A stretch of DNA of 64,000 nt from Calothrix sp. FI2-JRJ7 (GTDB lineage: Bacteria > Cyanobacteriota > Cyanobacteriia > Cyanobacteriales > Nostocaceae). The stretch is taken from contig JAHHGX010000085.1 of the NCBI GenBank assembly GCA_019359675.1, forward strand, positions 1 through 64,000, read 5' to 3'. The position numbers and the translations under genes were made by a program. This document shows positions 1-64,000 of the stretch, one piece after another (within the stretch, counting starts at the first letter, position 1; each line of letters starts with the position of its first letter). Under the pieces are notes generated by a model. That model was given only the letters and a program-made list of their open reading frames with translations, made no database searches and was not told the DNA's origin.

Positions 1-404
1 ATTTAAAATTAGAGCGTTTATAATCAGGTGCCCCTCGTAATGGTATTTCTGCCAAAACTGGATGCTCCTAGTTTTTCGCTCTGCTCAATAACTCCCTGGC
101 ATCCGAAGCTCCCCTGCCCCCTTTCGCGCGACTTGTGTGTACACCGTAGCTGCTCTGGAGGGGGGCTAAAAATCATCTCTTGTCCCTCTTAATAACAGTA
201 GCTAGGAATCATCTCTTGTCCCCCCTTATTAAGGGCTAGGGGTAGGGTGTTTACTTTGTGTATAAGCCCTAAAAAAAGTTCATGCAGAATTTGTGTCTCG
301 TGGCGCCAGCGTAAAAAGTTTGTATAATCAGGGTTTTGAGCTTTACGATTAAACACAATACTCTAATGAGCGATTGATACCTAAATTATAACAAAATCAA
401 CACC
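1..404. other. Intergenic start of window, no gene seen
   Basis: No gene can be supported on either strand. The segment at about 155-245 is C-run and G-run repeat material of the kind scattered through cyanobacterial genomes. It holds two copies of AATCATCTCTTGTCC, starting near 171 and 207, followed by a CCCCCCTTATTAAGGG half-palindrome. Confidence 0.5.
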
Positions 405-584
405 CTAGGCTAGGGGAATGGTTTCATATTCTTCTCCCTCAGTCACATCGGTAAATATTTCTTTATCCAAAAACTCGATTGAGGATGTGTCTGTATAAGC
501 TAGCACCTGCGGGAAAAACAGTTCTAAAAATTCGATAAAAAATGTCGAAATTAGTTCTTTGAAGAGCCTATCGTGGTCAATCAT
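405..584 (-). pseudogene. Truncated Rpn/DUF4351-type PD-(D/E)XK nuclease remnant
   Basis: The 59 residues from MIDHDRLFKEL onward match, from memory, the N-terminus of the cyanobacterial Rpn-like DUF4351 family (recombination-promoting nuclease or transposase-like proteins, normally around 250-330 aa). Recognisable pieces are HDRLFKELISTFF, ELFFP and SIEFLDKEIFTDVTEGE. The frame stops after EGEEYETIPLA, just before the catalytic PD-(D/E)XK core, so the product cannot be an active nuclease. An upstream in-frame ATG at 620 exists, but the family start is the one at 584. No continuation was found downstream, so this looks like a 3' deletion rather than a single frameshift. Confidence 0.7.
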
Positions 585-655
585 ACTGATTTTACTGCAC
601 CAATCAGATGATTTTACCAAAGTTGAGTGTCTTCTCTATCCTTGCTTATAATAAT

Positions 656-880
656 TTAGGAGTTAGGAGTCAAATCACGTTTTACAGCTTCGCAAATAAT
701 CCTTCGTAAATACTTAACTCGCTCTTCTGGCGCCAGTGCGTGCAGCGTATCATGAACACTCTGCGGCAATCTTAAACCTGTTACCTGCTTTGCTAAGGGT
801 TCGTTAATCCAGTCCTCAATATAGCCTTTTTTTTGTTGCTCAATAAATGCTTGCGTCTGCTTAGGTCTTGGGTTTGGCAT
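656..880 (-). CDS. Small conserved hypothetical protein, possibly DNA-binding
   Basis: This 74-aa basic protein starts at an ATG with AGGA just upstream (minus-strand reading). It opens with PRPKQTQAFIEQQ, contains VTGLRLPQSVHDTLHAL and ends EAVKRDLTPNS. The middle segment resembles a short strand plus two helices, as in ribbon-helix-helix antitoxins and plasmid repressors, with VTGLRLPQSV as the possible beta strand. No toxin partner is visible beside it, although the neighbouring Rpn fragment hints at a mobile origin. The function is an inference; only the reading frame and ribosome-binding site are seen directly. Confidence 0.55.
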   Translation of the reverse strand: MPNPRPKQTQAFIEQQKKGYIEDWINEPLAKQVTGLRLPQSVHDTLHALAPEERVKYLRRIICEAVKRDLTPNS

Positions 881-941
881 AATTTCCTGGTTAACTAGGT
901 TATATAGATATAATAATTTACAAAACCTTTCTAGTCAAATA

Positions 942-971
942 TTGACTTATCCTTGTTAACAGGGATATAAT
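942..971 (+). promoter_or_regulatory. Sigma-70-type promoter for the 64-aa gene
   Basis: TTGACT (942-947) and a perfect TATAAT (966-971) are separated by 18 bp. They sit 58 bp upstream of the ATG at 1029 and immediately before a long inverted repeat, so transcription would begin inside the repeat. Confidence 0.7.
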
Positions 972-1004
972 TCAGCATGGAAAGTTTATACTTTCCATAC
1001 TGAA
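971..1004. promoter_or_regulatory. 34-bp inverted repeat at the transcription start
   Basis: TTCAG-C-ATGGAAAG, loop TTTATA, CTTTCCAT-A-CTGAA: two 14-base arms with a single C/A mismatch and a 6-base loop. It begins at the last base of the -10 box. It could be an operator for a dimeric repressor or a 5' stem-loop protecting the mRNA. There is no T-run after it, so it is not a terminator. Confidence 0.6.
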
Positions 1005-1028
1005 CCTTGGAAACAAAAAGGAGGTTAA

Positions 1029-2724: not shown

Positions 2725-3285
2725 ATGACAAGTAAAGATGTAATACATGCATTAGGAGTGTTTGACAACTCTCAAAAAGTCGAGCAAGCAGTGAATGCGC
2801 TTAAAGCTTCTGACTTTCCTATGGAGAAAGTTTCTATTATTGCTAAAGATGTAGAGAAAGGCGAAAGTATTAGCGAAACCCAATTAGGCGATACTATTGG
2901 TGAGCAAAATGTAAATGCCACGGGAGCAGTAGGAGATACGCTGGCAGCAACAACTTGGGGCAGTGTTTTAGTTGGGTTGAGTAGTCTGGCACTTCCCGGT
3001 TTAGGAGCTATTTTAGCAGCAGGATCTGTGGGTGTTGCATTAGTAGCTAGCGTGGGAGGTGTTGCTGTAGGAGCAGCAGCAACTCAGAATTTGGTGAAAG
3101 CACTAGCTGATTTAGGCGTACCCGAAGAACGCGCCATAGTTTATAGCGACCGTCTTCAGCAGAGCAATTATATGCTTATACTAGATGGTACAAAAGAAGA
3201 AATTGAGCGCGCGGAACCAATACTACGTGACCAAAATATTGAATACTGGGGTATTTATGATTCGCTCCAAACTCAAAATGCATAA
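2725..3285 (+). CDS. General stress protein, YflT-like, glycine-zipper
   Basis: This 186-aa protein begins with a domain like the heat-induced stress protein YflT/GS17M family (residues 1-45: GVFDNSQKVEQAVNALKASDF followed by KVSIIAKDV). A long Gly/Ala/Val-rich hydrophobic stretch follows (about 75-120), resembling a glycine zipper, then a second alpha/beta segment (125-186) with ALADLGVPEERAIVYSD. The family is induced by stress, but its biochemical role is unknown. It is the first gene of an apparent operon with hemerythrin, DoxX and DUF72 proteins. No strong Shine-Dalgarno precedes the ATG. Confidence 0.8.
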   Translation: MTSKDVIHALGVFDNSQKVEQAVNALKASDFPMEKVSIIAKDVEKGESISETQLGDTIGEQNVNATGAVGDTLAATTWGSVLVGLSSLALPGLGAILAAGSVGVALVASVGGVAVGAAATQNLVKALADLGVPEERAIVYSDRLQQSNYMLILDGTKEEIERAEPILRDQNIEYWGIYDSLQTQNA

Positions 3286-3318
3286 AGACTCAAACTAATC
3301 AAAACACGCAGTAAAAAA

Positions 3319-4362
3319 ATGGTTACAACCCTTGATGACAGCAAACGCATTTCAATTGCAGCAAAATTGGCAGATATGAAAGTAATACAAAATCTGCTGA
3401 TTAGCAATGAGCAGCAATTTATCGAAGATTGTACTGATGATGATATTTGCGGACGCCTACAGCATATGCTTAAAGACGATCACAAAAATCTAGGTGTTCT
3501 CGATACTGTAATTGTTCAGTACGGCGTCAAGGGTGAGCCTAATAAAACCACCCAAAAAATGGTTGAGCAAGTTCGGGAACTAATGGAAAGTTCCGATTTG
3601 AGTTTGTTTGAGAAAGTACAAGAGCATGAATTGCTCAAGCATAAGCAAACGATGACTGGACTGCTTATCCACAAAGCTGCTCAAGTTGTTGGCGCCGATA
3701 TCGAAGCTGCGATTACTCCTTTAAATACAGTTAACTTTGAAAACCGCGCGCATCAAGAGCAACTCAAAGGTATTCTAGAACTTCTGGGTGTTCGTGAACT
3801 GACGGGAAAAGAGGCAAAACAGGGACTATGGGCAAGGGTTCAAGATGCTGTTGCAGCCTTAACTGGCGTGGTAGGTAGTGTAGTAACACGCACTGATGAC
3901 GAAATGAGCATCCGTGAACTTCTGCTGATGGATCATACTAAGGTTGATATTCTATTTACAGAAATTCGCAGTACTGACGACCCTCAAAAAATTCAAGAGT
4001 ATTTTGGGCAATTGTACAAAGACATAAAAGTTCATGGTACAGCCGAAGAAGAAGTTCTTTACCCAGCAGTTCGTCCGTATTATGAACACACCCAGGAGAT
4101 ATATGATCAGACTGACGAAGTGATAGATATGTTAGATGAAATTAAACCTATTGACCCTTCTTCGTCTGAATTCAAAGCAAAACTTGAGCAGCTAAGAACT
4201 GCGGTACGAACTCATATTAATCAAGAAGAAAACGATATATTCCCCAAACTCCGCGACAATTTTAGCCATCAGCAGCTTCTTCAAATGGCGACTGAGTTTA
4301 AAACAGCTAAAAGCAAACTGCAAGAACAAATGGCTCGTGCTAATTCTGAAAGCGCGAGGTGA
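3319..4362 (+). CDS. Hemerythrin HHE domain protein
   Basis: This 347-aa protein has two helical halves. The C-terminal half (about 195-320) is a hemerythrin HHE domain with the di-iron ligand pattern visible: H206 in LMDHTKVD, H239xxxE243 in VHGTAEEE, and H299 with acidic residues in RTHINQEENDIFP. The N-terminal half (about 10-160) is a helical bundle of the kind found in cyanobacterial hemerythrin and DUF892-like proteins, with D54, H55 and several Glu/His residues. The likely role is binding of O2, NO or peroxide, or iron handling under oxidative stress. It lies 33 bp after the stress protein gene and overlaps the DoxX gene by 4 bp. Confidence 0.85.
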   Translation: MVTTLDDSKRISIAAKLADMKVIQNLLISNEQQFIEDCTDDDICGRLQHMLKDDHKNLGVLDTVIVQYGVKGEPNKTTQKMVEQVRELMESSDLSLFEKVQEHELLKHKQTMTGLLIHKAAQVVGADIEAAITPLNTVNFENRAHQEQLKGILELLGVRELTGKEAKQGLWARVQDAVAALTGVVGSVVTRTDDEMSIRELLLMDHTKVDILFTEIRSTDDPQKIQEYFGQLYKDIKVHGTAEEEVLYPAVRPYYEHTQEIYDQTDEVIDMLDEIKPIDPSSSEFKAKLEQLRTAVRTHINQEENDIFPKLRDNFSHQQLLQMATEFKTAKSKLQEQMARANSESAR

Positions 4363-4772
4363 AAATTTATAATATGAGAAGGTATAAAATAGTTTTCCAA
4401 ATTATGCTCGCAGTTGGAATGGTAGTAGTTGGTATTTTACATTTTACTCACACAGAGGGATTTGAGAAGATTATACCAGACTTTCTTCCCTACCATTTAC
4501 CATTGGTTTATGGTAGTGGGTTTTTAGAAGTTTTGGCTGGCATCGGGTTATTAATTCCTAGTGTCAGCCGTTTTGCTGCATGGCTTCTTGTTGTACTTTA
4601 TATTGTTGTTTTTCCAGCTAATCTTTATCAAGCAGTTAATAACATTGAGGTTGCAGGATTGCCACACGACCCACCACTGATTTGGTTGCGGCTTCCTTTT
4701 CAGGCTCTATTAGTCGCTTGGGCTTGGTGGTTTACAAGAGAAGATATAAATGAAGTATCACAAGATAACTAA
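4359..4772 (+). CDS. DoxX family membrane protein
   Basis: This 137-aa protein carries the DoxX-like four-helix arrangement: IMLAVGMVVVGILHF with the short acidic turn HTEGFEKIIPDFLPYHLP, then LPLVYGSGFLEVLAGIGLLIP, a third helix RFAAWLLVVLYIVVFPAN, and a fourth ending in VAWAWW before the cytoplasmic tail. DoxX proteins are inner-membrane and often linked to redox or sulfur stress. The GTG start overlaps the hemerythrin stop (GTGA); an in-frame ATG at 4374 is the alternative. Translational coupling with hemerythrin is likely. Confidence 0.85.
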   Translation: MKIYNMRRYKIVFQIMLAVGMVVVGILHFTHTEGFEKIIPDFLPYHLPLVYGSGFLEVLAGIGLLIPSVSRFAAWLLVVLYIVVFPANLYQAVNNIEVAGLPHDPPLIWLRLPFQALLVAWAWWFTREDINEVSQDN

Positions 4773-5501
4773 ATGAGTAAGCTGCAAATTGGTACTAGCG
4801 GTTGGGTTTATAAACATTGGATGGATATTTTCTATCCACCCCATTTGCATAGCGACCAGCAACTACCATTTTATGCTCAACACTTTTCTACTGTAGAAAT
4901 TAACTTTTCCTTTTATCGTTTGCCAGAGCGGTCTGTGTTTGAAACTTGGCGCCAACAAACACCTTCTAACTTTATTTTTGCCGTCAAAGGTAGTCGCTAT
5001 CTCACTCACATGAAAAAGTTGAAAGACCCAATAGAACCCCTAGAGCGTCTAATGCAACGCGCGTCTGGATTACAAGAAAAGCTTGGCCCTATTTTATTTC
5101 AGTTTCCTCACACTTGGCACATTAATATTGGGCGCCTTCAGCCGTTTTTAGAGTTACTGCAAACCTATCCACAACAACGGTTTACCTTTGAATTCCGTCA
5201 TCAGAGCTGGCTAATACCCCAAGTTTACAAACTATTGGAAAATGCGGGTGCAGCTCTTTGCCTACCTGTAAGCCCAACAGTTCCCCTTGATGTATCTTTA
5301 ACTACCTCATGGACTTATATTCGGATGCACAGCGGGCAATGGGGTGTAGGTTACAATGATGAAGAGCTATCTATATGGGCTGAACGTATCCGCTCATTTC
5401 TTACGCAAAATATTGATGTTTACCTGTACTTCAACAATGACCCCGATGGACATGCTATTCGTGATGCTCAGAGATTGTATATTTTGCTGGGGTATTGTTG
5501 A
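4773..5501 (+). CDS. DUF72 (YecE-like) TIM-barrel protein
   Basis: This 242-aa protein has the DUF72 signatures: the opening LQIGTSGWVYKHWMDIFYP, YAQHFSTVEINFSFYRLP, FIFAVKGSRYLTH, LGPILFQFPHTW and the closing YLYFNNDPDGHAIRDAQRL. The length is normal for the family. Members adopt a TIM-barrel fold; some have been linked to lesion or nucleic-acid processing, but the reaction is not settled. Its ATG starts on the base after the DoxX stop codon, making it the last gene of the operon. Its stop lies 9 bp from the converging glycosyltransferase gene. Confidence 0.9.
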   Translation: MSKLQIGTSGWVYKHWMDIFYPPHLHSDQQLPFYAQHFSTVEINFSFYRLPERSVFETWRQQTPSNFIFAVKGSRYLTHMKKLKDPIEPLERLMQRASGLQEKLGPILFQFPHTWHINIGRLQPFLELLQTYPQQRFTFEFRHQSWLIPQVYKLLENAGAALCLPVSPTVPLDVSLTTSWTYIRMHSGQWGVGYNDEELSIWAERIRSFLTQNIDVYLYFNNDPDGHAIRDAQRLYILLGYC

Positions 5502-5510
5502 AATACTTGC

Positions 5511-7376
5511 TTATATTTTTTGTTGAGAATGCTTATTAATTTCTAAATAGCTTTCCCAAAAAGCTTGATTAGTAAGCTCAGGTAAAGTCTCTTTATAAAG
5601 TTGTTTAATAGTTGGAAACTTGATTAATACTCTTATAGCAATTGCAATTGTCTTAAACAGAACTTGAAAAAATTCTTCCCTGGAAAATTTCACAACAAAC
5701 CCTTCTTGATTGACCAAGTTGTAATACAAACCTTTTTTGGCTCTAAATAAGTTCAACGGTCTATAACCATGTATTGGAGCGATTTTGTATCCTTTATCAG
5801 TTAATTTACTATCTTTGTGAAAAAGGAAAGGTGGCAAAATATGACCATTTAATGTAATTAATCGCATTAAACGATGAATGGTATTTTCTGTCTCGTCAAT
5901 ACTTTTTTCATACTTTGTGTATAGAAATGGTAAAGGAGCACCTTTTACTGCTTTTTCTCCCAGGCTCAAAAGTTCTACATTTTTTTCTTCTGGGTCAAGA
6001 CATCTTAAGTAGTCAGGACCACGCAAAAAATCTTCCGCAGCTTTGAGGATAATGTTCGCACTTTTATACTTGTAGCAAAATGCCTCTCTAATAGTATATT
6101 TAATAATATACTTGATTACATCGAGTTGATTAAAGTCTTTAGTATAAAGCGTGTTGATTATTAATTCATTCTTTCTGAGGTAATAGTTGATTAAAGGAGA
6201 GTACTTAGTTTCCAATGCCTCGTGCCATACGCAAATACCATTTAATGTAATAATTTTCAAATTTAATCTAATGGGAAGTTCCATATCATCCATTTTGATA
6301 AAAAATGGGTAGGGTAATTTTGAATCATCGATAACCTGTATAGGAAAGCAAAATAACCACCAGCCATTATAATTAATGTATTCTTCTAGCTCGTTTAACA
6401 AAACGTTTTTTAGGCTTCTTAAATCTAGGTCTGGTTTTAGCCTAGTTACTTCTCTATCCCAAACCGCTCCATTTTCATGTTGAATGTATTTGGCATCGAG
6501 TCTTAACATACTGCCACCAATACAAAGGTTTTGGTCGCGCGCTGCACTTTGAAAATTGTAAATTCTTTCAAACACTTCTGGAGCGACAACTACATCGTCA
6601 TCCATAAATATAATGTGGGAAAAATCTGACTTACGCTTTAAAACTTCTATAATGCCTCGAGTATAACCGCCACTCCCACCTGCATTTTTGTTGTGTAGTA
6701 GATGTATTTCCGGATTGCCGAAATTTTTTAATGTTCTACCGTTATCAATGATAAATATTTCAAACTTATTTTTTAAATCTGGATGATTAATTAATTTTTG
6801 TTTTAATAATTCGAGATTTTTATATATATAATTTTCTCTTTTATAAGTACAGATGACAATAGCAATTTTTTTGTCTGTTATTAAAGGAGTATTAAGCTTA
6901 GTATAAAAATATCCACCGAAGAACTGACAATTATTTCTTAAAGCCTCAATTTCTAGATACAATAAACCTTTGTAGGGTTGTAGATTTATTTCGTTAAATA
7001 TACTGACTTCATTTTCATCGCTAGAAATGACTTTTTGCTGAATTAATTGTGCAGAATCTGAAAAATTATCTACATTTATCAGCTTGACTAAAAATTTGCC
7101 TTGAAACCTTAGTTTTATACTAATTGTTTGAATATTAGTATATTCTTGCCATTTTTTAATAGAGAAAGAATTAAAGTAAGTATCAAAGCTGATAATGCCG
7201 CCTTGTTTCAGTTCAATCATGTTTTGCTCATAATTGAGCAAGCATTTTGAGTTACTTCTTAAAAAAAGTTCTTCTTCTGTACAAACATCTATATTTGGTA
7301 AGACTATATTTTGAAGCTTAACGACAGTTTGAGTGTTTCTCTGTTCGAGCGTTGGGCTGACAAGAATATGTGTCAT
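5511..7376 (-). CDS. GlfT2-like galactofuranosyltransferase (GT2 family)
   Basis: This protein of 621 aa resembles the polymerising galactofuranosyltransferase GlfT2. It has an N-terminal beta-sandwich domain (about 1-165), a GT-A core from VICTYKR (about 174), NAGGSGG (about 231), the metal-binding DDD triad (about 259-261), WWLFCFP, the acceptor-side MDDMELPIRL (about 362) and WHE (about 384), then a helical C-terminal domain. The spacing of DDD, MDD and WHE follows mycobacterial GlfT2, which adds alternating Galf residues from UDP-Galf at the membrane. The start is set at 7376 because AAGGAG lies 9 bases upstream; a TTG 27 bases further up is less likely. It is the last gene of the Wzm/Wzt operon. 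Galf specificity is inferred. Confidence 0.75.
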   Translation of the reverse strand: MTHILVSPTLEQRNTQTVVKLQNIVLPNIDVCTEEELFLRSNSKCLLNYEQNMIELKQGGIISFDTYFNSFSIKKWQEYTNIQTISIKLRFQGKFLVKLINVDNFSDSAQLIQQKVISSDENEVSIFNEINLQPYKGLLYLEIEALRNNCQFFGGYFYTKLNTPLITDKKIAIVICTYKRENYIYKNLELLKQKLINHPDLKNKFEIFIIDNGRTLKNFGNPEIHLLHNKNAGGSGGYTRGIIEVLKRKSDFSHIIFMDDDVVVAPEVFERIYNFQSAARDQNLCIGGSMLRLDAKYIQHENGAVWDREVTRLKPDLDLRSLKNVLLNELEEYINYNGWWLFCFPIQVIDDSKLPYPFFIKMDDMELPIRLNLKIITLNGICVWHEALETKYSPLINYYLRKNELIINTLYTKDFNQLDVIKYIIKYTIREAFCYKYKSANIILKAAEDFLRGPDYLRCLDPEEKNVELLSLGEKAVKGAPLPFLYTKYEKSIDETENTIHRLMRLITLNGHILPPFLFHKDSKLTDKGYKIAPIHGYRPLNLFRAKKGLYYNLVNQEGFVVKFSREEFFQVLFKTIAIAIRVLIKFPTIKQLYKETLPELTNQAFWESYLEINKHSQQKI

Positions 7377-7412: not shown

Positions 7413-8141
7413 TTAGTTTCTCAAGTAAGCTTCAACGACTTTGGGCGCCTCTCCAACTAGCTTTACTTGTCCTTTCTCCAACCAAATTACTCGTTTGCAC
7501 GCGCGTTTTACAAACTCCAAATCATGCGAAACGACTAAAACCGTCGCTGACTCTTCCCAAAACTTATCAATCCGCTGCCTACACTTAGTTTTAAAATTCT
7601 CATCTCCAACCGATAGTACTTCATCTAAAATCAAAATATCTGGTTGCACGTCGGTTGCAATTGCAAACCCTAACCGTGCCGTCATCCCAGATGACAAAAC
7701 TTTGACTGGTGCGTTTGAATAGTCTTGAAGTGAGGCAAACTCTAAAATTGATGGCGCCCGTTCTATCATTTCCCTCCGGGTAAACCCTAACATGACTCCA
7801 TAAAGAATAATGTTATCTATCACTGAAATTTCTGCATCAAACCCTGCTCCTAACTCAATTAATGGAGCAATTTTTCCAAACACTCGCACAGTTCCATTTG
7901 TTGGTTGCAAAATTTTACATATTACCTTTAAAAGTGTCGATTTTCCTGCTCCGTTTGCCCCAATAATTCCAACCTTCTCACCTACATTTATCACTAAATC
8001 AACTTTGTTTAAGACTAATCTTTTTACAGGGTGGCGATACTTCCCTTCTAAAAACGACAAGATAGTTTTCTTCAAATCATAAGAAAACTCTTCTTGCGTC
8101 CGGCGCCATAGCGAAACTTGATTGAGACGAATAGCTTCCAT
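7413..8141 (-). CDS. wzt: Wzt-type polysaccharide ABC exporter ATPase
   Basis: This 242-aa ATP-binding subunit has Walker A GANGAGKSTLLK, a signature motif of LSSGMTARLGFAIA and Walker B DILILDEVLSVGD, then the H-loop VVSHDLEF. At 242 aa it ends after the nucleotide-binding domain and lacks the C-terminal carbohydrate-binding domain of the O9a/O8-type Wzt. It therefore resembles exporters that recognise an undecaprenyl-linked glycan without a terminal cap, such as mycobacterial galactan or Klebsiella O2a. The ATG follows the stop of the permease gene with no spacer, indicating coupled translation. It acts at the inner membrane with the permease upstream. Confidence 0.92.
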   Translation of the reverse strand: MEAIRLNQVSLWRRTQEEFSYDLKKTILSFLEGKYRHPVKRLVLNKVDLVINVGEKVGIIGANGAGKSTLLKVICKILQPTNGTVRVFGKIAPLIELGAGFDAEISVIDNIILYGVMLGFTRREMIERAPSILEFASLQDYSNAPVKVLSSGMTARLGFAIATDVQPDILILDEVLSVGDENFKTKCRQRIDKFWEESATVLVVSHDLEFVKRACKRVIWLEKGQVKLVGEAPKVVEAYLRN

Positions 8142-8951
8142 TTATAGCAAATCCATGAATGAATGCTGCAAGGAGCGGAAAAAAGTTAAACCCAACGTTA
8201 AAAAAATTACTCCACTTAATAATGATTGCCCAATGAACGATACATCTGGCATGGCGCCTGATAAAGAAATTTGGCGGATACTTTCAATTACTGGCATTAA
8301 AGGATTTAGTATCAACAAAGACCTGACTGATGCAGGTACAATTGCTGCTGGGTAAAATATAGGACTACTTAACCACAACATAAATACAATCAACTCGTAG
8401 AAGTAAGGTAAATCTCGAAAAAATACAAACAGCGCACTTACTAATAAGCTAATGCCAGTACATACTAAAATCAGCCCTATTAAGGGTAACACCAATGCAA
8501 TTACATTTACTAAGCTCCTAGAATTAACTAGCGTCATAATAGCCAGCAGTGGAAACACCCCAATTGAAAACTGGAAAATATTTGCTGTAACCATCGAGAC
8601 CGGAAAAATATTTACTGGCAAGCAAATTTTGTTCAACAAAGCTCCATTGTTCACCACACTCCATAATGCTTGTGTAGTAGAAGCTGAGAAAAAGTTAATC
8701 ACCACCAATCCAGTAAACACTGCCAGCACGTAATTCAAAATTGAATTGCCATAATAAGATGCAAACGCAGTTCCAAAAATTGCTGTGTAAACTCCTGTCA
8801 TTAGTAGTGGATTCAGCAATGACCAATAGACACCTAATAACGACCCTCGGTAACGCACCTTCAGATTTCGTGCTACCAAAACTCGTAGCAATTCCCAGTA
8901 ATGCTCTGCTTCTTTTTCCTTAAGCAGCGTTTTTAATTGCAACATCTCCAT
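8142..8951 (-). CDS. wzm: Wzm-type polysaccharide ABC exporter permease
   Basis: This 269-aa ABC-2 permease has six predicted membrane segments. The family opening (ELLRVLVARNLKVRYRGSLLG, then YWSLLNPLLMTGVYTAIFG) and the closing LNPLMPVIESIRQ are characteristic of TagG/KpsM/Wzm permeases that move lipid-linked glycans across the inner membrane. It partners the ATPase gene immediately downstream. Upstream, 58 bp away, lies the two-domain glycosyltransferase. Both flanking glycosyltransferases suggest that the cargo is a galactan-like surface polymer. Confidence 0.92.
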   Translation of the reverse strand: MEMLQLKTLLKEKEAEHYWELLRVLVARNLKVRYRGSLLGVYWSLLNPLLMTGVYTAIFGTAFASYYGNSILNYVLAVFTGLVVINFFSASTTQALWSVVNNGALLNKICLPVNIFPVSMVTANIFQFSIGVFPLLAIMTLVNSRSLVNVIALVLPLIGLILVCTGISLLVSALFVFFRDLPYFYELIVFMLWLSSPIFYPAAIVPASVRSLLILNPLMPVIESIRQISLSGAMPDVSFIGQSLLSGVIFLTLGLTFFRSLQHSFMDLL

Positions 8952-9009
8952 TTTCCCGCATCGATAGACTTTTTAATGGACTTTTTAATAAACTTTTTCA
9001 ACTCTGAAA

Positions 9010-11286
9010 TTATAAATTACCTTTATGCAAATTTAACCCAGCCCATAAACCAACGCGCATTCCGTCGAAAGCTTGTTGAATATATTTGATTAAAGTTGAA
9101 TTGGGAAGACGATGGGTGAATTTAAGACGAATAATTCTTAAAAGACAGCGATACGTTAAAAGTAAAGCCAAACGGGCAAAAAATATTGGAGATGATACTT
9201 TTTTAAGTCCATGTTTTAAAGCAAAGTAAGTTGTATTTTTTGCTAGTGAATACCAGCAAGTAAGATGTTTTTGGTCAACCCGATTGTGACTTGGTTGAGG
9301 AAAGTGACTTACAGTTACATCAGCATAATGAACTTCATACCCTGCCTGAATTAACCGCAAACAAACATCTGTTTCATCTAAAAAATAATCAAAAAACTCA
9401 TCGTAACCATTAATTTTCTCAAGTGAATCTTTTCTAAAAGATGAATTTGTCCCCATTAGACCGTTATACCAAAAGCCATTAGCACGATTATAATTAATAT
9501 AACTATTAGGACGGAGTGCAATCGTTTCACTAAGAACATTAGTAATACCACGGCAAAATTGTAAGGGAGAATTAGGACGAGTTAAGTCTCGAACTGCACC
9601 ACCAACAGCAGCGCATTTATCTCCATGCTGTGAATAGATGAGTACTAATTGTTCTAACCATTCAGAGGGCACAATCGCATCATCATCACAGAAAGCAACA
9701 ATCGTACCTAAAGCCATCTTAATTCCCATATTTCGAGAGTAACTAATGTTTTTAGGTTCAACTAGAGCATAATGAAGTTTGAAGCTATTCTTACTCGACC
9801 AAGTATTGATAATTTGAGTCGTCTCTGTATTTGATGAGGAATCAATCACAATTACTTCAAAGTTTTTGTAACTAAGTACTTCCAACGATTTAATAGCTTT
9901 TTCTAAGAAAGAAGGGCGATTAGTTGTACAAATTACAATTGAAACCAGAGGAAATATTTTAGTAGATATTGCCTGTTGTGTATGTGAGGAGTTTAACTTC
10001 CGAGTTTGCCAATATATGTGCCACATTTCGCTAATGGTTTGGCTTATAGCCGTCAGGAGAGTGAAAGGATTAATTGATACAGGTATGTAACCATTACCTG
10101 TATAGTAGTAAATTTGTCTTGCTAGATTTAAACACATAAGGTTAGGACGTTGGCAAGTCAGGATTGCAATATCGATTGGCTTCCAAAAGAAAGCGACTAG
10201 CCAAAGGCATAAACGACCATGCAATCTCTCAGGAGGATGCCAAAGAGTCAGTTTTTGCTCAACCTCCATCTTTGTTAAAATCTGACAAAGTAAATCATCT
10301 TGATAAATAGTAGATTGTACAAAAACCAATTTTGATGCGTTAGCGTTGATAATCTCTTCTAAAGGGTATTCATTATAATTCACTGCGCGCGGCATCTGAC
10401 CGCGAATCCCCTTTAGGAAATCTTGATAACCTGAAATTGCAGCAACAGCAAGAAAGTGTCTTCCTGTAGCGGCTTGAATTACAAGTCTTGGCAAACTCAC
10501 AACAATTCTTTTTACTAAAAGCTCAGGTCGGTGTTTTTGCCAACAGTAACAAAGATTGCGCTCATCGTAATAATTAATCCAAGGTCTGAATTTAAAATCG
10601 GGTGAATGGTGCCAAACTACTGAAGCGGGATTGACGGCAACCACCCAACCAGCTTGGGACGCGCGCAAACACCACTCCACATCATCGAAGTGTAAAAAAT
10701 AATCTTCAAACACTCCTATTTGCTGAACTACTTGACTCCGTACTAACAGTGATGCTGCTGCACAAACATCAACGCTAAGGTAAGGTCTACCTTTTAATAT
10801 TTCTTCATTGGAAATGTTACTAAGGAACGCAAAGTTTGTTTTTAAGTGTGCTTTAGTAGTATTGATAAAGGCGCCTACTTCTTGAATCTGATTAGGTTTT
10901 TGCAACTTACGAATTTGAGAACCTACTAAACCGACTTCATGATGGTTTTGCAAAGTTTGAATTAGCGCGCTTAATGCTCTATTAGAGAGACGAACGTCAT
11001 CATCAAGCAACCAGATGTAATCATACCCAAGCTGACTAGCAACTTGTAAACCTTTTGAAAAACCTCCAGAACCACCTAAATTTCTACCCGTTTGCAAAAC
11101 CTGAACTAGAGTAGAATAATGTTGCTCTAAGTAAGTTTGAGTACCATCGGTAGAACCATTATCGACTACATAAATATCAAGCTTTATATTCTCTAAGTTA
11201 AGTTTACTAATGTCTTCAAGCAGTAAGCAAAGATGACTTAGTTTATTCCAAGTTACAATAACAGTAGCTATTGTTACACTTCCCAT
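9010..11286 (-). CDS. Two-domain GT2 glycosyltransferase, GlfT1-like plus second GT-A
   Basis: This 758-aa protein contains two complete GT2 catalytic domains. The first (about 1-290) has VTWNKLSHL, VDNGSTDGT, NLGGSGGFSKGL and DDD at 95-97, and a WHHS motif before a membrane-proximal basic region, as in GlfT1/WbbL-type enzymes that start galactan or rhamnan chains. The second (from about 448) has VSIVICTTNRPSF, VIDSSSNTE, SYSRNMG and CDDDA. A linker of about 150 residues joins them. Two transferases in one chain would add two successive sugars. It is the first gene of the operon that continues through wzm, wzt and the GlfT2-like gene. Sugar donors are inferred. Confidence 0.8.
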   Translation of the reverse strand: MGSVTIATVIVTWNKLSHLCLLLEDISKLNLENIKLDIYVVDNGSTDGTQTYLEQHYSTLVQVLQTGRNLGGSGGFSKGLQVASQLGYDYIWLLDDDVRLSNRALSALIQTLQNHHEVGLVGSQIRKLQKPNQIQEVGAFINTTKAHLKTNFAFLSNISNEEILKGRPYLSVDVCAAASLLVRSQVVQQIGVFEDYFLHFDDVEWCLRASQAGWVVAVNPASVVWHHSPDFKFRPWINYYDERNLCYCWQKHRPELLVKRIVVSLPRLVIQAATGRHFLAVAAISGYQDFLKGIRGQMPRAVNYNEYPLEEIINANASKLVFVQSTIYQDDLLCQILTKMEVEQKLTLWHPPERLHGRLCLWLVAFFWKPIDIAILTCQRPNLMCLNLARQIYYYTGNGYIPVSINPFTLLTAISQTISEMWHIYWQTRKLNSSHTQQAISTKIFPLVSIVICTTNRPSFLEKAIKSLEVLSYKNFEVIVIDSSSNTETTQIINTWSSKNSFKLHYALVEPKNISYSRNMGIKMALGTIVAFCDDDAIVPSEWLEQLVLIYSQHGDKCAAVGGAVRDLTRPNSPLQFCRGITNVLSETIALRPNSYINYNRANGFWYNGLMGTNSSFRKDSLEKINGYDEFFDYFLDETDVCLRLIQAGYEVHYADVTVSHFPQPSHNRVDQKHLTCWYSLAKNTTYFALKHGLKKVSSPIFFARLALLLTYRCLLRIIRLKFTHRLPNSTLIKYIQQAFDGMRVGLWAGLNLHKGNL

Positions 11287-11818
11287 ACATTTAATTATGT
11301 TTATTGTATCAACTAAACTAACCGAAAATCCGGTTATGACTTGACGACAAAATTCATCATCAAGTTCATAACATAAGTATTAGAAGTGCAAAACTACTTT
11401 ATTGCTCTAGAATTTACCTGTTTTTATGTTTTAATTCTTCACTCATTGGGTAGAGGTTATTATGTTCGCTCTATCTAAAGATTTAGCCGATTGTTAAATT
11501 AATTTGTTACCTAATATACGATACAACTTTATACTAAAAACTGGCTCAACTAGATAATCAAGGTTTTGCAACCTATTGATAGTGTCTAGAGCAAGAGTGT
11601 GGTGATTACGTAAGTAAGTCGTAATGTTATTTTAAAATTTAACAATTTTTTAAAAAAGTTTATTTTTGTAATCTTGATAATATATAAAAACTATGGAGAG
11701 AATTATATTTTTTTATAATCCTTAAAATATATCCAAAATTAATAATTTTTCAAGGTATGTTTTGACTGAAGTCAAACATTTTCATGAATAGTTCGCCTAT
11801 GCTTGACAGTATGGATGA
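11287..11818. other. 532-bp AT-rich intergenic region
   Basis: This region lies between the start of the polysaccharide operon (leftward) and a small membrane-protein gene (rightward), so it should contain promoters for both. It is very AT-rich, especially 11630-11760, with several TATAAT-like stretches, but no unambiguous -35/-10 pair and no reading frame with protein-like content were found. Confidence 0.5.
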
Positions 11819-11965
11819 ATGAACCGAAATTACAAGCTTGAGGCAATGGCACCTTGGAGCGTGGCTTTGACGGTTGTCGTCGTCGGTTCTGTTGTAGCCG
11901 CCTGGGCAGGTATTCAGGGTTACTTGGGCGATAAGAGCTTCTGGGCTTGGACATCAGGGTTATGA
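11819..11965 (+). CDS. Predicted 48-aa single-span membrane protein
   Basis: An ATG at 11819 opens a 48-codon frame. The product has a short polar N-terminus (MNRNYKLEA), one clear hydrophobic helix (WSVALTVVVVGSVVAAWAGI), then a loop GYLGDKSFWAWTSGL. An internal ATG at 11846, with GAGG before it, would give 39 aa. The stretch is richer in GC than its flanks and uses codons like a real gene, while the antisense frame (11772-11954) is an Arg/Pro-rich shadow. The size resembles small photosystem or cytochrome b6f subunits, but I do not recognise it as any of them. It ends 98 bp before glbN and could be cotranscribed. Confidence 0.5.
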   Translation: MNRNYKLEAMAPWSVALTVVVVGSVVAAWAGIQGYLGDKSFWAWTSGL

Positions 11966-12062
11966 GTACGTGGAACTAAGGCGCCTTTGGCAACTGTTAC
12001 TACTCGGTGGCATGATGTTCTGGTTCAATTCAAATAACTTCCATTCAATAATTAGGAGAATT

Positions 12063-12434
12063 ATGACAACTTTATTTGAAAAACTCGGTGGCGTCGCTGT
12101 TGACTTAGCGGTTGACAAATTCTATGAAAGAGTTTTAAAGGACGACCGCATTAAGCACTTCTTTACTGATGTGAATATGGTGAAGCAACGGGCACATCAG
12201 AAAGCTTTTCTAACCTATGCCTTTGGTGGAACAGACGAATATGACGGTCGCTATATGCGGGAAGCACACAAAGAACTAGTAGAAAAGCAAGGTTTAAACA
12301 GCGAACATTTTGATGCAGTTGCACAAGATTTAATGGAAACCTTGAAAGAAATGGGGGTTTCTCAGGATTTACTCGCAGAAGTTGCTGCGGTTGCTACTGC
12401 ACCTCAACATCGGAAAGATGTTTTAAACCAGTAG
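12063..12434 (+). CDS. glbN: Group I truncated hemoglobin (cyanoglobin)
   Basis: This 123-aa protein is nearly colinear with Synechocystis GlbN as I remember it. The distal His is H45 (QRAHQKAF), the proximal His H69 (MREAHKEL), and H116 (TAPQHRKDV) matches the His117 that forms a covalent bond to the heme vinyl in GlbN. The N-terminus LFEKLGG-VAVDLAVDKFYERV lacks one residue of the usual GGTTAVDL. The start at 12063 is chosen because AGGAG lies 4 bases upstream and the family begins there; the open frame to 11970 is not coding. In this family the protein binds O2 and NO and helps against nitrosative stress. Confidence 0.93.
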   Translation: MTTLFEKLGGVAVDLAVDKFYERVLKDDRIKHFFTDVNMVKQRAHQKAFLTYAFGGTDEYDGRYMREAHKELVEKQGLNSEHFDAVAQDLMETLKEMGVSQDLLAEVAAVATAPQHRKDVLNQ

Positions 12435-12443
12435 AATTAATTG

Positions 12444-12484
12444 GAAAATGCTTCAGGTTATTAATTTACCTCTGGAGCATTTTC
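12444..12484. terminator. Bidirectional terminator between converging genes
   Basis: GAAAATGCT (12444-12452) pairs with AGCATTTTC (12476-12484), and the inner part can extend the stem. The A and T tracts at the ends serve both strands. It lies between the stops of glbN (+) and the 78-aa gene (-). Confidence 0.7.
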
Positions 12485-12492
12485 TAACCTGC

Positions 12493-12729
12493 TCAAACCA
12501 AAGCAGGTTGGGGCTTTAATTCACAAACTTGTACTTCTTGACGCGATACAATCCGCAATTCATGGGGATAACGTGGACGCGGATTATTCACTAACCAGAT
12601 TGGAGGCACCATCATAGCTTCATAGTAATCAATCCGATACAAAACTCCGGGTTCGTTTATGAGTTCTACAATAGTTCCCGGTAGATACTCAAACATTTCA
12701 TCCCAATCAATAGATAACTCAGTGTTCAT
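12493..12729 (-). CDS. Conserved hypothetical protein, 78 aa
   Basis: A 78-aa acidic protein of a type often seen in cyanobacteria, but of no named family I can give. It contains IDWDEMFEYLPGTIVEL, EPGVLYRIDYYEAMMVPPIWLV and NNPRPRYPHELRIVSRQEV, suggesting a small beta-rich (SH3-like or barrel) fold. The start is the only ATG with protein-like content; the Shine-Dalgarno is weak (GGTAGAG). It converges on glbN, with a shared terminator between them. Confidence 0.65.
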   Translation of the reverse strand: MNTELSIDWDEMFEYLPGTIVELINEPGVLYRIDYYEAMMVPPIWLVNNPRPRYPHELRIVSRQEVQVCELKPQPALV

Positions 12730-12820
12730 AGCACTCTACCATTTCAATACCAGTCAAAGAATAAATAATTTATATATTGATTTAACTTGTGATAGCATCC
12801 GCTATGAACGCACCCTTCAA

Positions 12821-13069
12821 TTAACAATAAAAATGGCTTTTATCGAGAATAACTTCACCATAGTCTGGCACCCAGGCAACCCAAGTGTCTGGGGATTCTT
12901 GACAGAGTAATTTAGCTTCATCAAATGCGTATTCACTAGGCGCCTGTAGTAGTTTAACCCAGGTATCGCGAGTGTAGGTGATGTGGCAGACCGGGTTCCA
13001 ACCTGAAACTATCGCTCTAACGAGGGCGGGTGTTGGTGAGCAAACTGAATGAGTTGTTTGAAGAGACAT
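12821..13069 (-). CDS. Hypothetical protein, 82 aa
   Basis: The start is placed at 13069 (MSLQTTHSV) because GGAGGAAGG precedes it on the minus strand; the open frame continues to 13114 without a better site. The product has TWVKLLQAPSEYAFDEAKLLCQES and DTWVAWVPDYGEVILDKSHF, a pattern common in small cyanobacterial proteins of unknown role. It lies upstream of the 78-aa gene on the same strand with a 91-bp gap and may share a transcript. Confidence 0.6.
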   Translation of the reverse strand: MSLQTTHSVCSPTPALVRAIVSGWNPVCHITYTRDTWVKLLQAPSEYAFDEAKLLCQESPDTWVAWVPDYGEVILDKSHFYC

Positions 13070-52697: not shown

Positions 52698-52746
52698 GAG
52701 TAAGTTGCCGAAAAGAGCAGACGCTCTTTAAAAGAAACTACTACTT

Positions 52747-52820
52747 GGGGTCGTAGTTCAATCGGTTAGAGCACCGCCCTGTCACGGCGGAAGTTGCGAG
52801 TTCGAGCCTCGTCGACCCCG
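52747..52820 (+). tRNA. tRNA-Asp (GTC)
   Basis: A 74-nt cloverleaf: acceptor GGGGTCG pairing with CGACCCC and discriminator G; D arm GTTC-AATCGGTTA-GAGC; anticodon arm CCGCC-CTGTCAC-GGCGG with anticodon GTC at 52781-52783; T arm GCGAG-TTCGAGC-CTCGT-type. CCA is not encoded. Confidence 0.96.
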
Positions 52821-52838
52821 TCTCAAAAGATTAATAGT

Positions 52839-61371: not shown

Positions 61372-62072
61372 AGATTTTTAGTCATTATCCGACTTTAATA
61401 TATCTATTATCAACTCCGAACTGCTAATTTAAGTTACGCGATAAACTTATAGTCAGCATAGAAACCGGGTTTCTTACGATAACCTACATGCTTAACTATA
61501 ATCTTTCATCAGAAACCCGGTTTCTTTAAATTACCTCTAGACAAATCTTTATAAACGGTTTATATTGTTAGATTGTGACCAAAGTAAAATTTGGTTGCCT
61601 CGTCGCATTGTCTGAAAGTCACAGCTAGATGTGCCGCCATTTGAATTTAGATATATTATAATGTCTAGGTTATGAATCGCGATAAACCGCTAGTTGAAAC
61701 TGGCGCCAGTGGCTGATAGACTTAGAGAGCTTGGGAAAAGTTTGTAGATTCGTTTGTAAATGCATTCTCAGACCCAATTGACTGGTATATTAGTTTTATT
61801 GACTAGTCCCGACAAGTAAGTTGAACCTTGAATATTATATTTAAGGTTGATGTTAAGGCGAAGAACAAAAGGATACTGGAAGCGAATAGCTGTCTAAGTC
61901 CATTTAAAGGCGCCACAATGTCAGAGCAGAAGCAAAGTAAATTAATTCCTTGCTTTCGGCATTGATAAAGGTTTTGCTTTGATAAAAAGTGAATCCCTAA
62001 ATTTATATTGGGCGCGAATAAAGAAAAAGATAAGTACATAGGTACGTATTAAAAAAAGGAGAACCAGTAACT
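61372..62072. other. ndhN-rplC divergent spacer, 701 bp
   Basis: Besides the repeat at 61460-61525 there is AACCTT (61820-61825) and AAGGTT (61841-61846), a small stem in a long AT-rich leader. A TATAAT at about 61657 and TTGACT near 61780 are possible promoter parts for the ribosomal operon, but I could not fix the start. The last 100 bases show no gene; AAAAAAAGGAG precedes the rplC GTG. Confidence 0.5.
61460..61525. repeat. AGAAACC/GGTTTCT element, copy E
   Basis: AGAAACCGGGTTTCT (61460-61474) and AGAAACCCGGTTTCT (61511-61525) with 36 bases between. It lies 89 bp upstream of the ndhN start, in its promoter region. Confidence 0.85.
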
Positions 62073-62711
62073 GTGTCTGTAGGTATTCTCGGCACCAAAC
62101 TGGGCATGACTCAAATTTTTGACGAAGCAGGAGCTGCAATTCCTGTTACGGTCATTCAAGCGGGGCCATGCACTGTTACACAAGTAAAGACAAAACAGAC
62201 CGACGGTTACTCTGCCATTCAGGTTGGCTATCGTGAAGTGAGACCCAAATCTTTGAATAAGCCAAAGTTGGGACATTTAGCAAAGTCGGAAGCGACTTCT
62301 TTGCGTCACTTACGGGAATATCGCATTGAAAATTCTAGCGAGTATTCTTTAGGTCAACAGATTCTGGCAGATATTTTTAGCGCAGGTCAAATAGTTGACG
62401 TATGCGGTACTAGTATTGGTCGAGGTTTTGCGGGTAACCAAAAACGCAATAACTTCGGTCGAGGACCCATGTCACACGGTTCTAAAAACCACCGTGAACC
62501 AGGTTCGATTGGTGCGGGTACAACCCCTGGTCGTGTTTTTCCTGGTATGCGGATGGCTGGTCGTCTCGGTGGTAAGCAGGTAACTATTAAAAAGTTAACT
62601 GTCATTAGAGTTGATACTGAACGTAATTTGTTGCTAATCAAGGGAGCTATTCCTGGCAAACCTGGAGCTTTAGTAAACGTCGTCCCTGCCAATTTAGTCG
62701 GTAGACAATAG
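62073..62711 (+). CDS. rplC: 50S ribosomal protein L3
   Basis: This 212-aa protein is typical L3: [20 protein letters not shown] at the start, then [40 protein letters not shown] and the closing [17 protein letters not shown], with the loop that reaches the peptidyl-transferase centre. It starts with GTG at 62073, after AAAGGAG. It is the first gene of a rplC-rplD-rplW-rplB operon; the S10 gene common in other bacteria is not upstream, which is normal in cyanobacteria. Length normal. Confidence 0.97.
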
Positions 62712-62736
62712 TAGCTTTCTTACGAAGGAAACAGAA

Positions 62737-63369
62737 ATGTTTGAGTATACAGTCAAAAACTGGCAAGGTGAGCAAGTCGAGCAAAAGACGTTCGAGATGA
62801 AGGTTGCTAAGGAATCATCAGCTTCTCACATCGTGCATCGCGCTTTGATTCGACAATTGCACAATTCGCGTAGCGGAACGGCAAATACTAAAACCCGTTC
62901 GGAAGTACGAGGTGGTGGTCGCAAACCTTGGCGCCAAAAAGGAACTGGTCGCGCACGTGCTGGTTCGATACGTTCACCGTTGTGGCGTGGTGGTGGTGTC
63001 ATTTTCGGACCCAAACCGCGTGATTTTAACTTAGATATGAACCGCAAAGAGCGGAAGTTAGCACTGCGTACAGCATTTGCTAGTCGAATTGACGATTTAA
63101 TCGTTGTAGAAGAATTTGGCACCCAAATGTCTCGTCCTAAAACCAAAGAATTGGTGCAGGCAATAACTCGCTGGGGTTCAGAACCTGAGAACAAAACTTT
63201 ATTAATAACTTCGGAACGTGACGATAACGTTTATTACTCAGCTCGTAACGTTGAAAATTTAAAGTTGTTACCAGCAAATCAACTCAACGTTTACGACTTG
63301 TTAAACGCTGACAAAATTATTGTTACCGCCAATGCTTTAGAACAAATTCAGGAGGTCTACAGTGCCTAG
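62737..63369 (+). CDS. rplD: 50S ribosomal protein L4
   Basis: This 210-aa protein shows the L4 core: the basic [20 protein letters not shown] and [20 protein letters not shown] loop that lines the exit tunnel, then [13 protein letters not shown] and the alpha/beta body. It starts 26 bp after rplC with GAAGGAAACAG upstream. It overlaps rplW by 8 bp. In other bacteria L4 represses its own operon, and the long rplC leader would allow such control, but no structural match to the E. coli leader was seen. Confidence 0.97.
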
Positions 63370-63676
63370 AATTGAGACCCGTGACTTACCTGATTTAGTA
63401 CGTCGCCCGATTGTGACTGAAAAAGCGACTATTAATATGGAGCAAAATAAATATACTTTTGAAGTTGCTCCAAAAGCTGACAAATTGCAAATTAGAGAAG
63501 CAATTGAAAGCTTATTTGATGTCAAAGTTGTAAAAGTCAACACTGCAAACCCACCACGTAAAAAACGTCGTGTAGGTAAGTTTGTTGGCTACAAGCCCCA
63601 TTACAAGCGTGCGATAGTCACTGTCGCTCCTGGGGATGAAGAGAAAATTAGAAAAGTCCTATTCCCAGAAGTGTAA
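63362..63676 (+). CDS. rplW: 50S ribosomal protein L23
   Basis: This 104-aa protein has the L23 features: [60 protein letters not shown] and [20 protein letters not shown]. It sits at the tunnel exit and is the docking site for trigger factor and SRP. The start is GTG at 63362, 8 bp inside rplD, with AGGAGG before it; translation is coupled. Length normal for bacteria. Confidence 0.97.
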
Positions 63677-63685
63677 AAAAGCAAA

Positions 63686-64000
63686 ATGGGTACTCGTTCT
63701 TTCCGTCCCTATACTCCCAGTACGCGACAAGTCACAATTTCGGACTTCGCAGAAATTACTAAAAAAGACCCAGAAAAGTCTTTAACCGTCTACAAACACC
63801 GCGCTAAAGGTCGTAACAACCAAGGACGCATTACATGTCGTCATCGCGGTGGTGGACACAAAAGACTTTATCGGATTATCGATTTTAAACGCGACAAGCG
63901 CAATATTCCGGCAAACGTCATCGCTATTGAGTACGACCCAAACCGTAACGCTCGCATTGCGCTTGTGCAATACGAAGACGGCGAAAAGCGTTATATCATT
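63686..64000 (+). CDS. rplB: 50S ribosomal protein L2, N-terminal part (cut by window end)
   Basis: The first 105 codons are open to the last base of the window. The N-terminus [20 protein letters not shown], then [20 protein letters not shown] and [20 protein letters not shown], is typical of cyanobacterial L2. The full protein should be about 287 aa; the missing 180 or so lie beyond the window. It starts 9 bp after the rplW stop. The ATG lacks a strong Shine-Dalgarno, as expected for a translationally coupled gene. Confidence 0.96.

What the first reader, a model, noticed from the sequence alone, without database searches (positions are those of the whole stretch)
1..64000. GGCGCC is repeated about 100 times and HIP1 is not seen
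Reading the window I count about 100 GGCGCC sites, one per roughly 640 bp, in genes and spacers alike. A genome of about 39% GC would be expected to give three or four. GCGATCGC, the normal highly iterated palindrome of cyanobacteria, was not seen once, and GATC is sparse. GCGCGC/CGCGCG also looks over-represented (about 30). GGCGCC may replace HIP1 as this lineage's iterated motif, possibly linked to a DNA methyltransferase that recognises it. In HIP1 genomes the palindrome is kept by selection and mutation bias.
Basis: partly seen in the sequence, partly recalled or inferred. Interest (0 to 1): 0.72.

Follow-up and report, generated by a model that had tools for sequence, protein, structure and literature searches.

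The report
GGCGCC replaces HIP1 in one genus
In one genus of filamentous cyanobacteria the short DNA word GGCGCC occurs well over a thousand times per million bases, in place of the usual repeated word of cyanobacteria; this was reported for one strain in 2015, and here it proves to be genus-wide, tied to a stand-alone DNA methyltransferase, and still being kept at the level of the six letters themselves.

Summary
The window has 102 GGCGCC (3.45 expected from base composition), no GCGATCGC and 16 GATC; the 8.66-Mb genome has 14,889 GGCGCC and 31 HIP1.

New here: (1) A clade property: 7 of 7 genus genomes are GGCGCC-rich and HIP1-poor, 0 of 210 other family genomes are GGCGCC-rich. (2) All 7 carry a HindV-type m5C methyltransferase (inferred target GRCGYC) and none has a HindVP endonuclease match; none of 55 relatives with that methyltransferase is enriched. 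All 7 lack a methyltransferase, probably the CGATCG one, found in 204 of 210 relatives. (3) In four aligned genomes, CpG transitions aside, GGCGCC is the best-protected of 1,146 hexamers (28 changes, 126.7 expected), protection ends at the motif edge, and new sites form about 8-fold too often. The inner C still goes to T at full rate, so overall loss is average and exceeds gain. I favour weak motif-level selection on methylated sites; site-directed repair is the rival. Methylation is untested.

The parts
1..64000 (.). 102 GGCGCC sites (palindrome, 6 bp each). First bases: 302, 729, 1054, 1468, 1572, 1939, 2216, 2524, 3691, 4948, 5131, 7444, 7753, 8102, 8253, 10870, 11980, 12939, 15831, 17080, 18465, 19092, 19715, 20007, 20727, 20901, 21468, 22917, 23843, 24322, 24808, 25370, 26434, 26488, 26805, 27313, 27455, 28550, 28771, 28812, 29644, 30993, 31418, 32259, 32308, 32704, 33361, 33687, 33828, 33968, 34374, 35228, 35288, 35442, 36168, 36751, 37396, 37577, 37713, 38337, 38391, 39400, 40406, 40487, 41395, 42120, 42865, 43043, 43910, 44443, 44543, 44716, 44873, 45670, 46042, 46270, 47000, 47751, 48062, 48145, 49054, 49796, 50373, 51197, 52625, 53546, 54375, 54563, 55088, 55166, 55795, 56825, 57798, 59199, 59474, 59803, 60520, 61263, 61315, 61702, 61909, 62930
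   Evidence: direct count
1..64000 (.). absence of GCGATCGC (0) and near-absence of GATC (16: 1071, 1188, 3023, 3478, 3931, 4105, 17935, 18776, 21495, 22184, 23085, 24900, 29186, 47347, 50588, 55992)
1..64000 (.). secondary over-represented words CGCGCG (37) and GCGCGC (28), overlapping each other
   Evidence: excess over relatives

Best explanation
GGCGCC is the highly iterated palindrome (an 'alternate HIP') of the cyanobacterial genus that holds Dulcicalothrix desertica PCC 7102 and Calothrix PCC 7103. Proposed history: an ancestor lost HIP1, lost its usual HIP1-associated m5C methyltransferase (probably the CGATCG enzyme), and kept a HindV-type m5C methyltransferase (inferred target GRCGYC) without its HindVP endonuclease, so GGCGCC was no longer cut against. 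A process acting on the DNA word itself then favoured GGCGCC. It still acts: mutations that break a site are kept out 4-5 fold, new sites form about 8-fold too often, in every reading frame and in spacers, and the effect stops at the six-base edge. The exception is C-to-T at the inner C, as expected if that C is 5-methylated and deaminates; through this leak losses now exceed gains. I commit to weak selection (scaled strength about 2-3, my own arithmetic) for methylated GGCGCC marks as the likeliest force. Shown: counts, clade pattern, gene distributions, substitution pattern. Inferred: enzyme specificity, methylation of the inner C, selection rather than repair, order of historical events.
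For: Genome-wide excess and HIP1 absence. Clade-exact pattern, 7/7 against 0/210. HindV-type enzyme in 7/7, one clade with 100/99 support in a midpoint-rooted tree of 29 rows. In 312 kb around the enzyme in 16 relatives GRCGYC words are scarce: GGCGCC 1 against about 24 expected, GACGTC 1 against about 24, GACGCC plus GGCGTC 17 against 48, those 17 all in five loci (L071, L072, L073, L079, L080) where no HindVP-type gene was found beside the enzyme. A gene family of HindVP type lies directly 5' of the enzyme in 25 of 33 non-genus loci and 0 of 6 genus loci (39 of 80 loci examined; 3 members tested, all PF09519). PF09519 matches in 0 of 7 genus genomes and 39 of 55 enzyme-bearing relatives, some as fragments. 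A widespread methyltransferase, E up to 1e-60, in 0 of 7 and 204 of 210. Protection: 28 observed against 126.7 expected, rank 1 of 1,146 hexamers, in all frames and spacers; flanks 0.93-1.38; gains 7 against 0.85 expected. C3-to-T 83 against 65.5 expected, and CpG transitions 4 against 0.4 in the frame where they change the amino acid.
Against: Methylation was not measured, and the recognition sequence rests on homology plus site scarcity. Taken whole, GGCGCC is not better conserved than average: loss 0.0972 against a mean of 0.0932, rank 533 of 732; pairwise it ranks 6 of 1,769, 4 of 1,744 and only 400 of 1,830 in conservation. Protection appears only when CpG transitions are set aside. The C-to-T rate itself is not exceptional: 88 CpG transitions against 83.5 expected, rank 58 of 225 hexamers. 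The enzyme is not sufficient: none of 55 relatives carrying it is enriched, including 16 without a PF09519 match and one of those, G079, that also lacks the HIP1-type enzyme. Protection in the window itself is weaker (7 against 12.7) than in the other two regions (7 against 46.1; 14 against 67.9). Spacer numbers are small (2 against 7.3). Four related lineages were used, site-lineages are not independent, and gains are few (7). Losses exceed gains, so a present-day force of this strength would not by itself hold the present density.
Confidence: 0.55

Rival explanations
1. Methylation-directed mismatch repair ratchet (Elhai 2015): a hypothetical MutH-like nickase reads G-methyl-C and makes repair keep mutations that create GGCGCC. 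The abundance is a by-product of repair, without selection for function.
For: Predicts conversion of GRCGYC near-misses: 2 of 8 GACGCC lineages became GGCGCC against 0.06 expected; other GRCGYC words are scarce. Needs methylation of the inner C, which the C-to-T leak fits.
Against: The model says bias stops at saturation (about 1 site per 1,000 nt), yet sites here are one per 582 bp and a strong bias is still seen. As I read it, repair guided by sites should act over about 1 kb; substitution rate is not lower near sites (O/E 1.14 within 10 bp, 0.84 at 800-1,600 bp) and protection is confined to 6 bp. Elhai stressed two GRCGYC enzymes; two of seven genomes show only one above threshold. GACGCC is scarce in relatives too (O/E 0.36).
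Confidence: 0.2
2. A site-specific short-patch or conversion process (like very-short-patch repair, or biased conversion between the many chromosome copies of a cyanobacterial cell) turns near-misses into GGCGCC and restores broken sites.
For: Protection limited to the motif, in all frames and in spacers; gains about 8-fold too frequent. Formally hard to tell from weak selection in between-species data.
Against: A T:G patch system should mend the C-to-T change best, and that is the one change not suppressed. No Vsr above cut-off in the window's genome (PF03852, best E 1.35).
Confidence: 0.2
3. Pure relic: GGCGCC accumulated under a force in the ancestor that has stopped, and sites are now decaying.
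For: 134 losses against 9 gains, the highest ratio of 732 hexamers (median 1.00), or 134 against 32 by pattern counts; overall loss rate is average.
Against: A pure relic would lose all six positions at background rate; non-CpG changes are at 0.22 of expectation and gains are raised.
Confidence: 0.05
4. Chance, composition or codon usage.
For: Frame 0 (Gly-Ala codons) is the commonest: 40 of the window's 102 sites.
Against: O/E 20.4 against a dinucleotide model in 734 kb, against 0.04 in 312 kb of relatives; reversed word CCGCGG 8 in the genome; protection in all frames and in spacers.
Confidence: 0.01

Closest known systems
Alternate HIP GGCGCC of Calothrix PCC 7103 (Elhai 2015, PMC4390886)
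   Different: Here it is shown in 7 genomes of one genus, against the paper's remark that exceptional HIPs occur sporadically and not in clades. Two genomes show only one GRCGYC enzyme above threshold. HindVP endonuclease not found in any of the 7. Gain, loss and protection rates measured.
HIP1, GCGATCGC
   Same: GC-rich palindrome at about one per kilobase, linked to methyltransferases; reported as kept by selection (Xu et al. 2018, seen only as cited in PMC6604393).
   Different: Different word with no GATC core; the inferred HIP1-type methyltransferase is missing and HIP1 is nearly gone.
E. coli Dcm and Vsr very-short-patch repair (recalled, no call)
   Same: Methyltransferase plus biased correction can enrich a methylation site.
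   Different: No Vsr found; the C-to-T change is the one that escapes.

Membership tests
HIP class (alternate HIP sensu Elhai 2015) | strongly over-represented GC-rich palindrome | tested here: met
   O/E 20.4 in 734 kb, top of all palindromic 6-mers
HIP class (alternate HIP sensu Elhai 2015) | density about 1,000-2,000 per Mb | tested here: met
   1,719/Mb; genus range about 1,150-1,719
HIP class (alternate HIP sensu Elhai 2015) | HIP1 low or absent in the same genome | tested here: met
   31 in 8.66 Mb
HIP class (alternate HIP sensu Elhai 2015) | genome encodes a methyltransferase predicted to recognise the site | tested here: met
   HindV-type enzyme by homology; specificity not assayed
HIP class (alternate HIP sensu Elhai 2015) | site is methylated in the cell | not testable with these tools
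   no methylation data; the C-to-T leak is indirect
HIP1 (GCGATCGC) | iterated GCGATCGC | tested here: not met
   0 in window, 31 in genome
HindV-type m5C methyltransferase (GRCGYC) | C5-cytosine methylase domain and close similarity to HindV methylases | tested here: met
   PF00145; 54.6% identity over 95% to a plasmid gene annotated hindVM, nearer hits bearing general names; homologues in relatives sit beside RE_HindVP-type genes
HindV-type m5C methyltransferase (GRCGYC) | recognition of GRCGYC | tested here: inconclusive
   GRCGYC words scarce around the enzyme in relatives; HindV specificity recalled; no assay
complete HindV restriction-modification system | cognate HindVP endonuclease | tested here: not met
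   PF09519 in 0 of 7 genus genomes, all candidates scored
Dcm/Vsr very-short-patch repair | Vsr endonuclease | tested here: not met
   best E 1.35 in the window's genome, below cut-off

The most novel reading that the evidence does not exclude
A living genus-wide process that reads exactly six bases, probably through an orphan m5C mark, and pulls the whole genome toward that word by favouring creation and blocking loss in all contexts. The word can be swapped (HIP1 to GGCGCC) when a lineage changes its methyltransferase, so iterated palindromes would be written by whichever orphan methyltransferase a cyanobacterium depends on.
Probability: 0.3. Interest if true: 0.85.

Novelty: new member of a known kind. 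Interest (0 to 1): 0.5.

Why it matters
Why cyanobacterial genomes are peppered with one palindrome is a long-open question. Here one genus has swapped the palindrome, and four close genomes show the new word being kept, made and lost at measurable rates. That gives a natural experiment: the word, the candidate enzyme, the missing endonuclease and the leak position are all named, so the selection and repair models now make different testable predictions.

Tried and rejected
Vsr-type repair: looked for in the window's genome, not found. 'Two GRCGYC enzymes needed': not supported; G060 shows one above threshold and is among the richest (1,701/Mb), though G064, also with one, is the poorest (1,150/Mb) (only the ten best first-look candidates per genome were scored). 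'Enzyme presence suffices': rejected, 55 relatives with it are not enriched. 'Loss of endonuclease suffices': rejected, 16 relatives with the enzyme and no PF09519 match have a median of 8.5 GGCGCC/Mb (0.71 for 39 with both). The truncated methylase L015 was first taken for the HIP1-type enzyme; it is a patchy accessory methylase, full length in some genus members, so I turned to the widespread one. Its identity as the CGATCG enzyme (DmtC) is inferred from distribution and Elhai's text; the 15 phage records listed of 1,076 gave no specific name. HIP1 changes at the GATC core were not used as evidence of targeted removal, because in the frame GCG-ATC-GC the changed bases are third codon positions. 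Protection of sequence near sites: tested and not found. Paper searches: the search for GGCGCC and Calothrix together returned one paper, Elhai 2015; subscription papers are mostly not in that library. Rows dropped: L098 from the tree (internal stop); I gave 39 of 80 loci; substitution counts use only aligned stretches of at least 300 bp and 80% identity, without gaps or insertions, and places where three of four genomes agree.
Full report
1. Observation. The window has 102 GGCGCC sites against 3.45 expected from base composition and 5.6 from a dinucleotide model; it is the top 6-mer under both Markov models ranked. GCGATCGC is absent, GATC is 16 against 226 expected, GGCC 17 against 91. The window is contig C85 of an unnamed 8.66-Mb, 91-contig genome. 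The whole genome has 14,889 GGCGCC (1,719/Mb; reversed word CCGCGG 8) and 31 HIP1.

2. Where it occurs. The 217 genomes that the family search returned were counted. The 7 of the window's genus have 7,475-20,380 GGCGCC (about 1,150-1,719/Mb) and 31-163 HIP1 (3.6-22.6/Mb). Of the other 210, the highest GGCGCC count is 1,053 in 9.5 Mb (with 1,270 of the control word), and 209 have at least 535 HIP1; the exception, G182 (3.2 Mb), has 30 HIP1 and 15 GGCGCC. In 388 genomes of an even draw from the order (two of them from the genus) one outside genome stands out: G273, with 9,489 GGCGCC in 3.8 Mb against 304-343 in four congeners; a 10-kb sample has 27 against 6.2 expected at 55% G+C. G327 (2,365 in 2.2 Mb) has a high control count and may be compositional. 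G377 (3,403 in 6.4 Mb) and G224 (2,493 in 6.2 Mb) are moderately rich, though a 4-kb sample of G377 showed 1 against 1.1 expected.

3. Prior knowledge. Elhai 2015 (PMC4390886; I read the abstract, section 2.5, section 3.5, part 1 of section 3.4, and passages) reported GGCGCC as the alternate HIP of Calothrix PCC 7103 and in 19 kb of Calothrix D253, with GATC at 16% of expectation, two GRCGYC-type enzymes, and a broken CGATCG methyltransferase gene. It proposed a G-methyl-C mismatch-repair ratchet and stated that exceptional HIPs occur sporadically, not in clades. The present genome is a further member of that genus.

4. The methyltransferase. The genome has nine PF00145 hits in eight genes or fragments. 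Two are HindV-type: A (L011 9475-10428, minus, 317 aa) and B (L010 8017-8934, minus, 305 aa). A matches a plasmid gene annotated hindVM at 54.6% identity; nearer hits bear general names. At E up to 1e-60 A has a homologue in 62 of 217 genomes, all 7 of the genus among them (best hits 81-100%); B-like second hits occur in G000, G061, G062 (partial), G063 and G065, and not in G060 or G064 (ten best candidates scored per genome). A of the genus is one clade (100/99, midpoint root, 29 rows), and five named loci share the same neighbour genes. In 39 of 80 fetched loci examined, a family of genes lies directly 5' of the enzyme in 25 of 33 non-genus loci and in 0 of 6 genus loci; three members were tested and all are RE_HindVP, PF09519. 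PF09519 matches 43 of 217 genomes, some only in fragments, and 0 of 7 of the genus; 39 of the 55 other enzyme-bearing genomes have a match, 16 do not. In 312 kb from 16 relatives' loci GRCGYC is scarce: GGCGCC 1 against about 24, GACGTC 1 against about 24, GACGCC plus GGCGTC 17 against 48; the 17 all lie in five loci without a HindVP-type neighbour. In the genus GGCGCC is 20-fold over and the other three words are still scarce (GACGCC 19, GGCGTC 11, GACGTC 5 in 597 kb, against 51, 51 and 80 expected from composition).

5. The missing HIP1-type enzyme. A methylase of about 440 aa is present (E up to 1e-60) in 204 of 210 non-genus genomes and in 0 of 7 of the genus (seven best candidates scored per genome). 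I infer it to be the m5C CGATCG enzyme; no call names it. Six non-genus genomes also lack it at that threshold and keep 2,878-6,883 HIP1, so its loss alone does not remove HIP1 quickly.

6. Rates. Syntenic stretches of G000, G060, G061 and G065 (pairwise identity 93-95%; 226,317 four-way columns) were compared by three-against-one parsimony. GGCGCC: 311 places in all four, 134 in three, 48 in two, 32 in one. Among 1,378 site-lineages there were 134 losses and 9 gains, the most lopsided of 732 hexamers (median 1.00). Taken whole, its loss rate is average (0.0972 against a mean of 0.0932, rank 533 of 732), and pairwise conservation ranks 6 of 1,769 against G060, 4 of 1,744 against G065 and 400 of 1,830 against G061, in an earlier and smaller data set. 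The reason is one change: 83 of the losses are C3-to-T, and 17 changed more than one base. Against a background matched for neighbouring bases and codon position, C3-to-T is 83 against 65.5 (1.27), while all other single changes are 34 against 146.4. A second tally excluding every CpG transition gives 28 against 126.7, rank 1 of 1,146 hexamers (median 0.82); CpG transitions are 88 against 83.5, rank 58 of 225, so not exceptional in themselves. By class the 28 divide as frame 0, 16 against 59.7; frame 1, 6 against 29.2; frame 2, 4 against 30.5; spacers, 2 against 7.3; in frame 1, where a CpG transition changes the amino acid, there are 4 against 0.4. Other all-GC hexamers pooled give 0.69; third codon positions 16 against 97.7, all others 12 against 29.0; by region 7/12.7 in the window, 7/46.1 in C79 and 14/67.9 in C20. 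The twelve flanking bases show O/E 0.93-1.38. Gains from one-off words: 7 of 316 against 0.85 expected (Poisson P 3e-5), 2 of them from 8 GACGCC lineages. One-off words are about 1.2 to 2.2 times scarcer than in relatives, except GGGGCC (0.21 against 0.15), and GGTGCC, the deamination product, which is commoner (O/E 1.13 against 0.43). Loss differs among lineages: G000 42/353, G061 57/368, G060 17/328, G065 18/329 (chi-square P 1e-6).

7. Reading. The word itself is recognised: protection ignores frame and ends at the motif edge. The inner C behaves as a methylated cytosine would: it alone escapes the protection. An active bias, by selection or by site-directed repair, opposes change but does not balance this leak, so sites are slowly declining, fastest in PCC 7103 and the window's genome. 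A regional repair effect is not seen: substitution rate falls slightly with distance from sites rather than rising. That, and bias persisting at one site per 582 bp, argue against the ratchet as written.

8. Not in place. In 165 site-by-relative pairs no relative had GGCGCC; 86 were two changes away. In 83 HIP1-by-relative pairs G000 kept no HIP1 and had GGCGCC at or next to the spot 0 times (pairs share sites and are not independent). HIP1 loss and GGCGCC gain look like separate genome-wide events.

9. Limits. No methylation data, no assay, no population data. ORF-based gene calls stand in for annotation. The expectation for gains is small. The scaled selection figure (about 2.5) is my arithmetic from the 0.22 ratio, not a fitted model.

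Noticed in passing
window 1-64000; G000 sample of 734 kb: CGCGCG (O/E 5.2) and GCGCGC (2.8) are over-represented, against 0.29 and 0.10 in 312 kb of relatives; CGCGCG gains and losses are near balance (23 and 19). Possibly a second iterated word of this genus.
   Followed up: partly
G000 sample of 734 kb: Many palindromes are nearly absent: GTGCAC, CCGCGG, CCATGG, GCATGC and CCCGGG 0, TGCGCA 1, GATC O/E 0.13, GGCC O/E 0.12, as expected where restriction enzymes act or acted. Several are also scarce in the relatives.
   Followed up: partly
L014 9248-11131: A cytosine methylase followed by a gene matching type II restriction enzyme profiles; possibly a CCGCGG system (specificity recalled, not tested), which would fit the scarcity of CCGCGG.
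   Followed up: no
genome G273 (L292), same order, another family: 9,489 GGCGCC in 3.8 Mb while four congeners have 304-343; 27 against 6.2 expected in a 10-kb sample. A possible independent gain.
   Followed up: partly
G061 and G000 against G060 and G065: GGCGCC sites are lost two to three times faster in PCC 7103 and the window's genome than in D. desertica PCC 7102 and PCC 7716; cause unknown.
   Followed up: partly
L015 9815-10234, L016 9915-10319, L017 9758-9943: Three short remnants of other cytosine methylases in this genome; homologues of the first have long open frames in G060, G062 and one of two G063 copies.
   Followed up: partly
window 35397-39247 and 52746-52822: Hydrogenase maturation genes (HypD and HypF families) and a tRNA-Asp gene: ordinary chromosomal content.
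   Followed up: no
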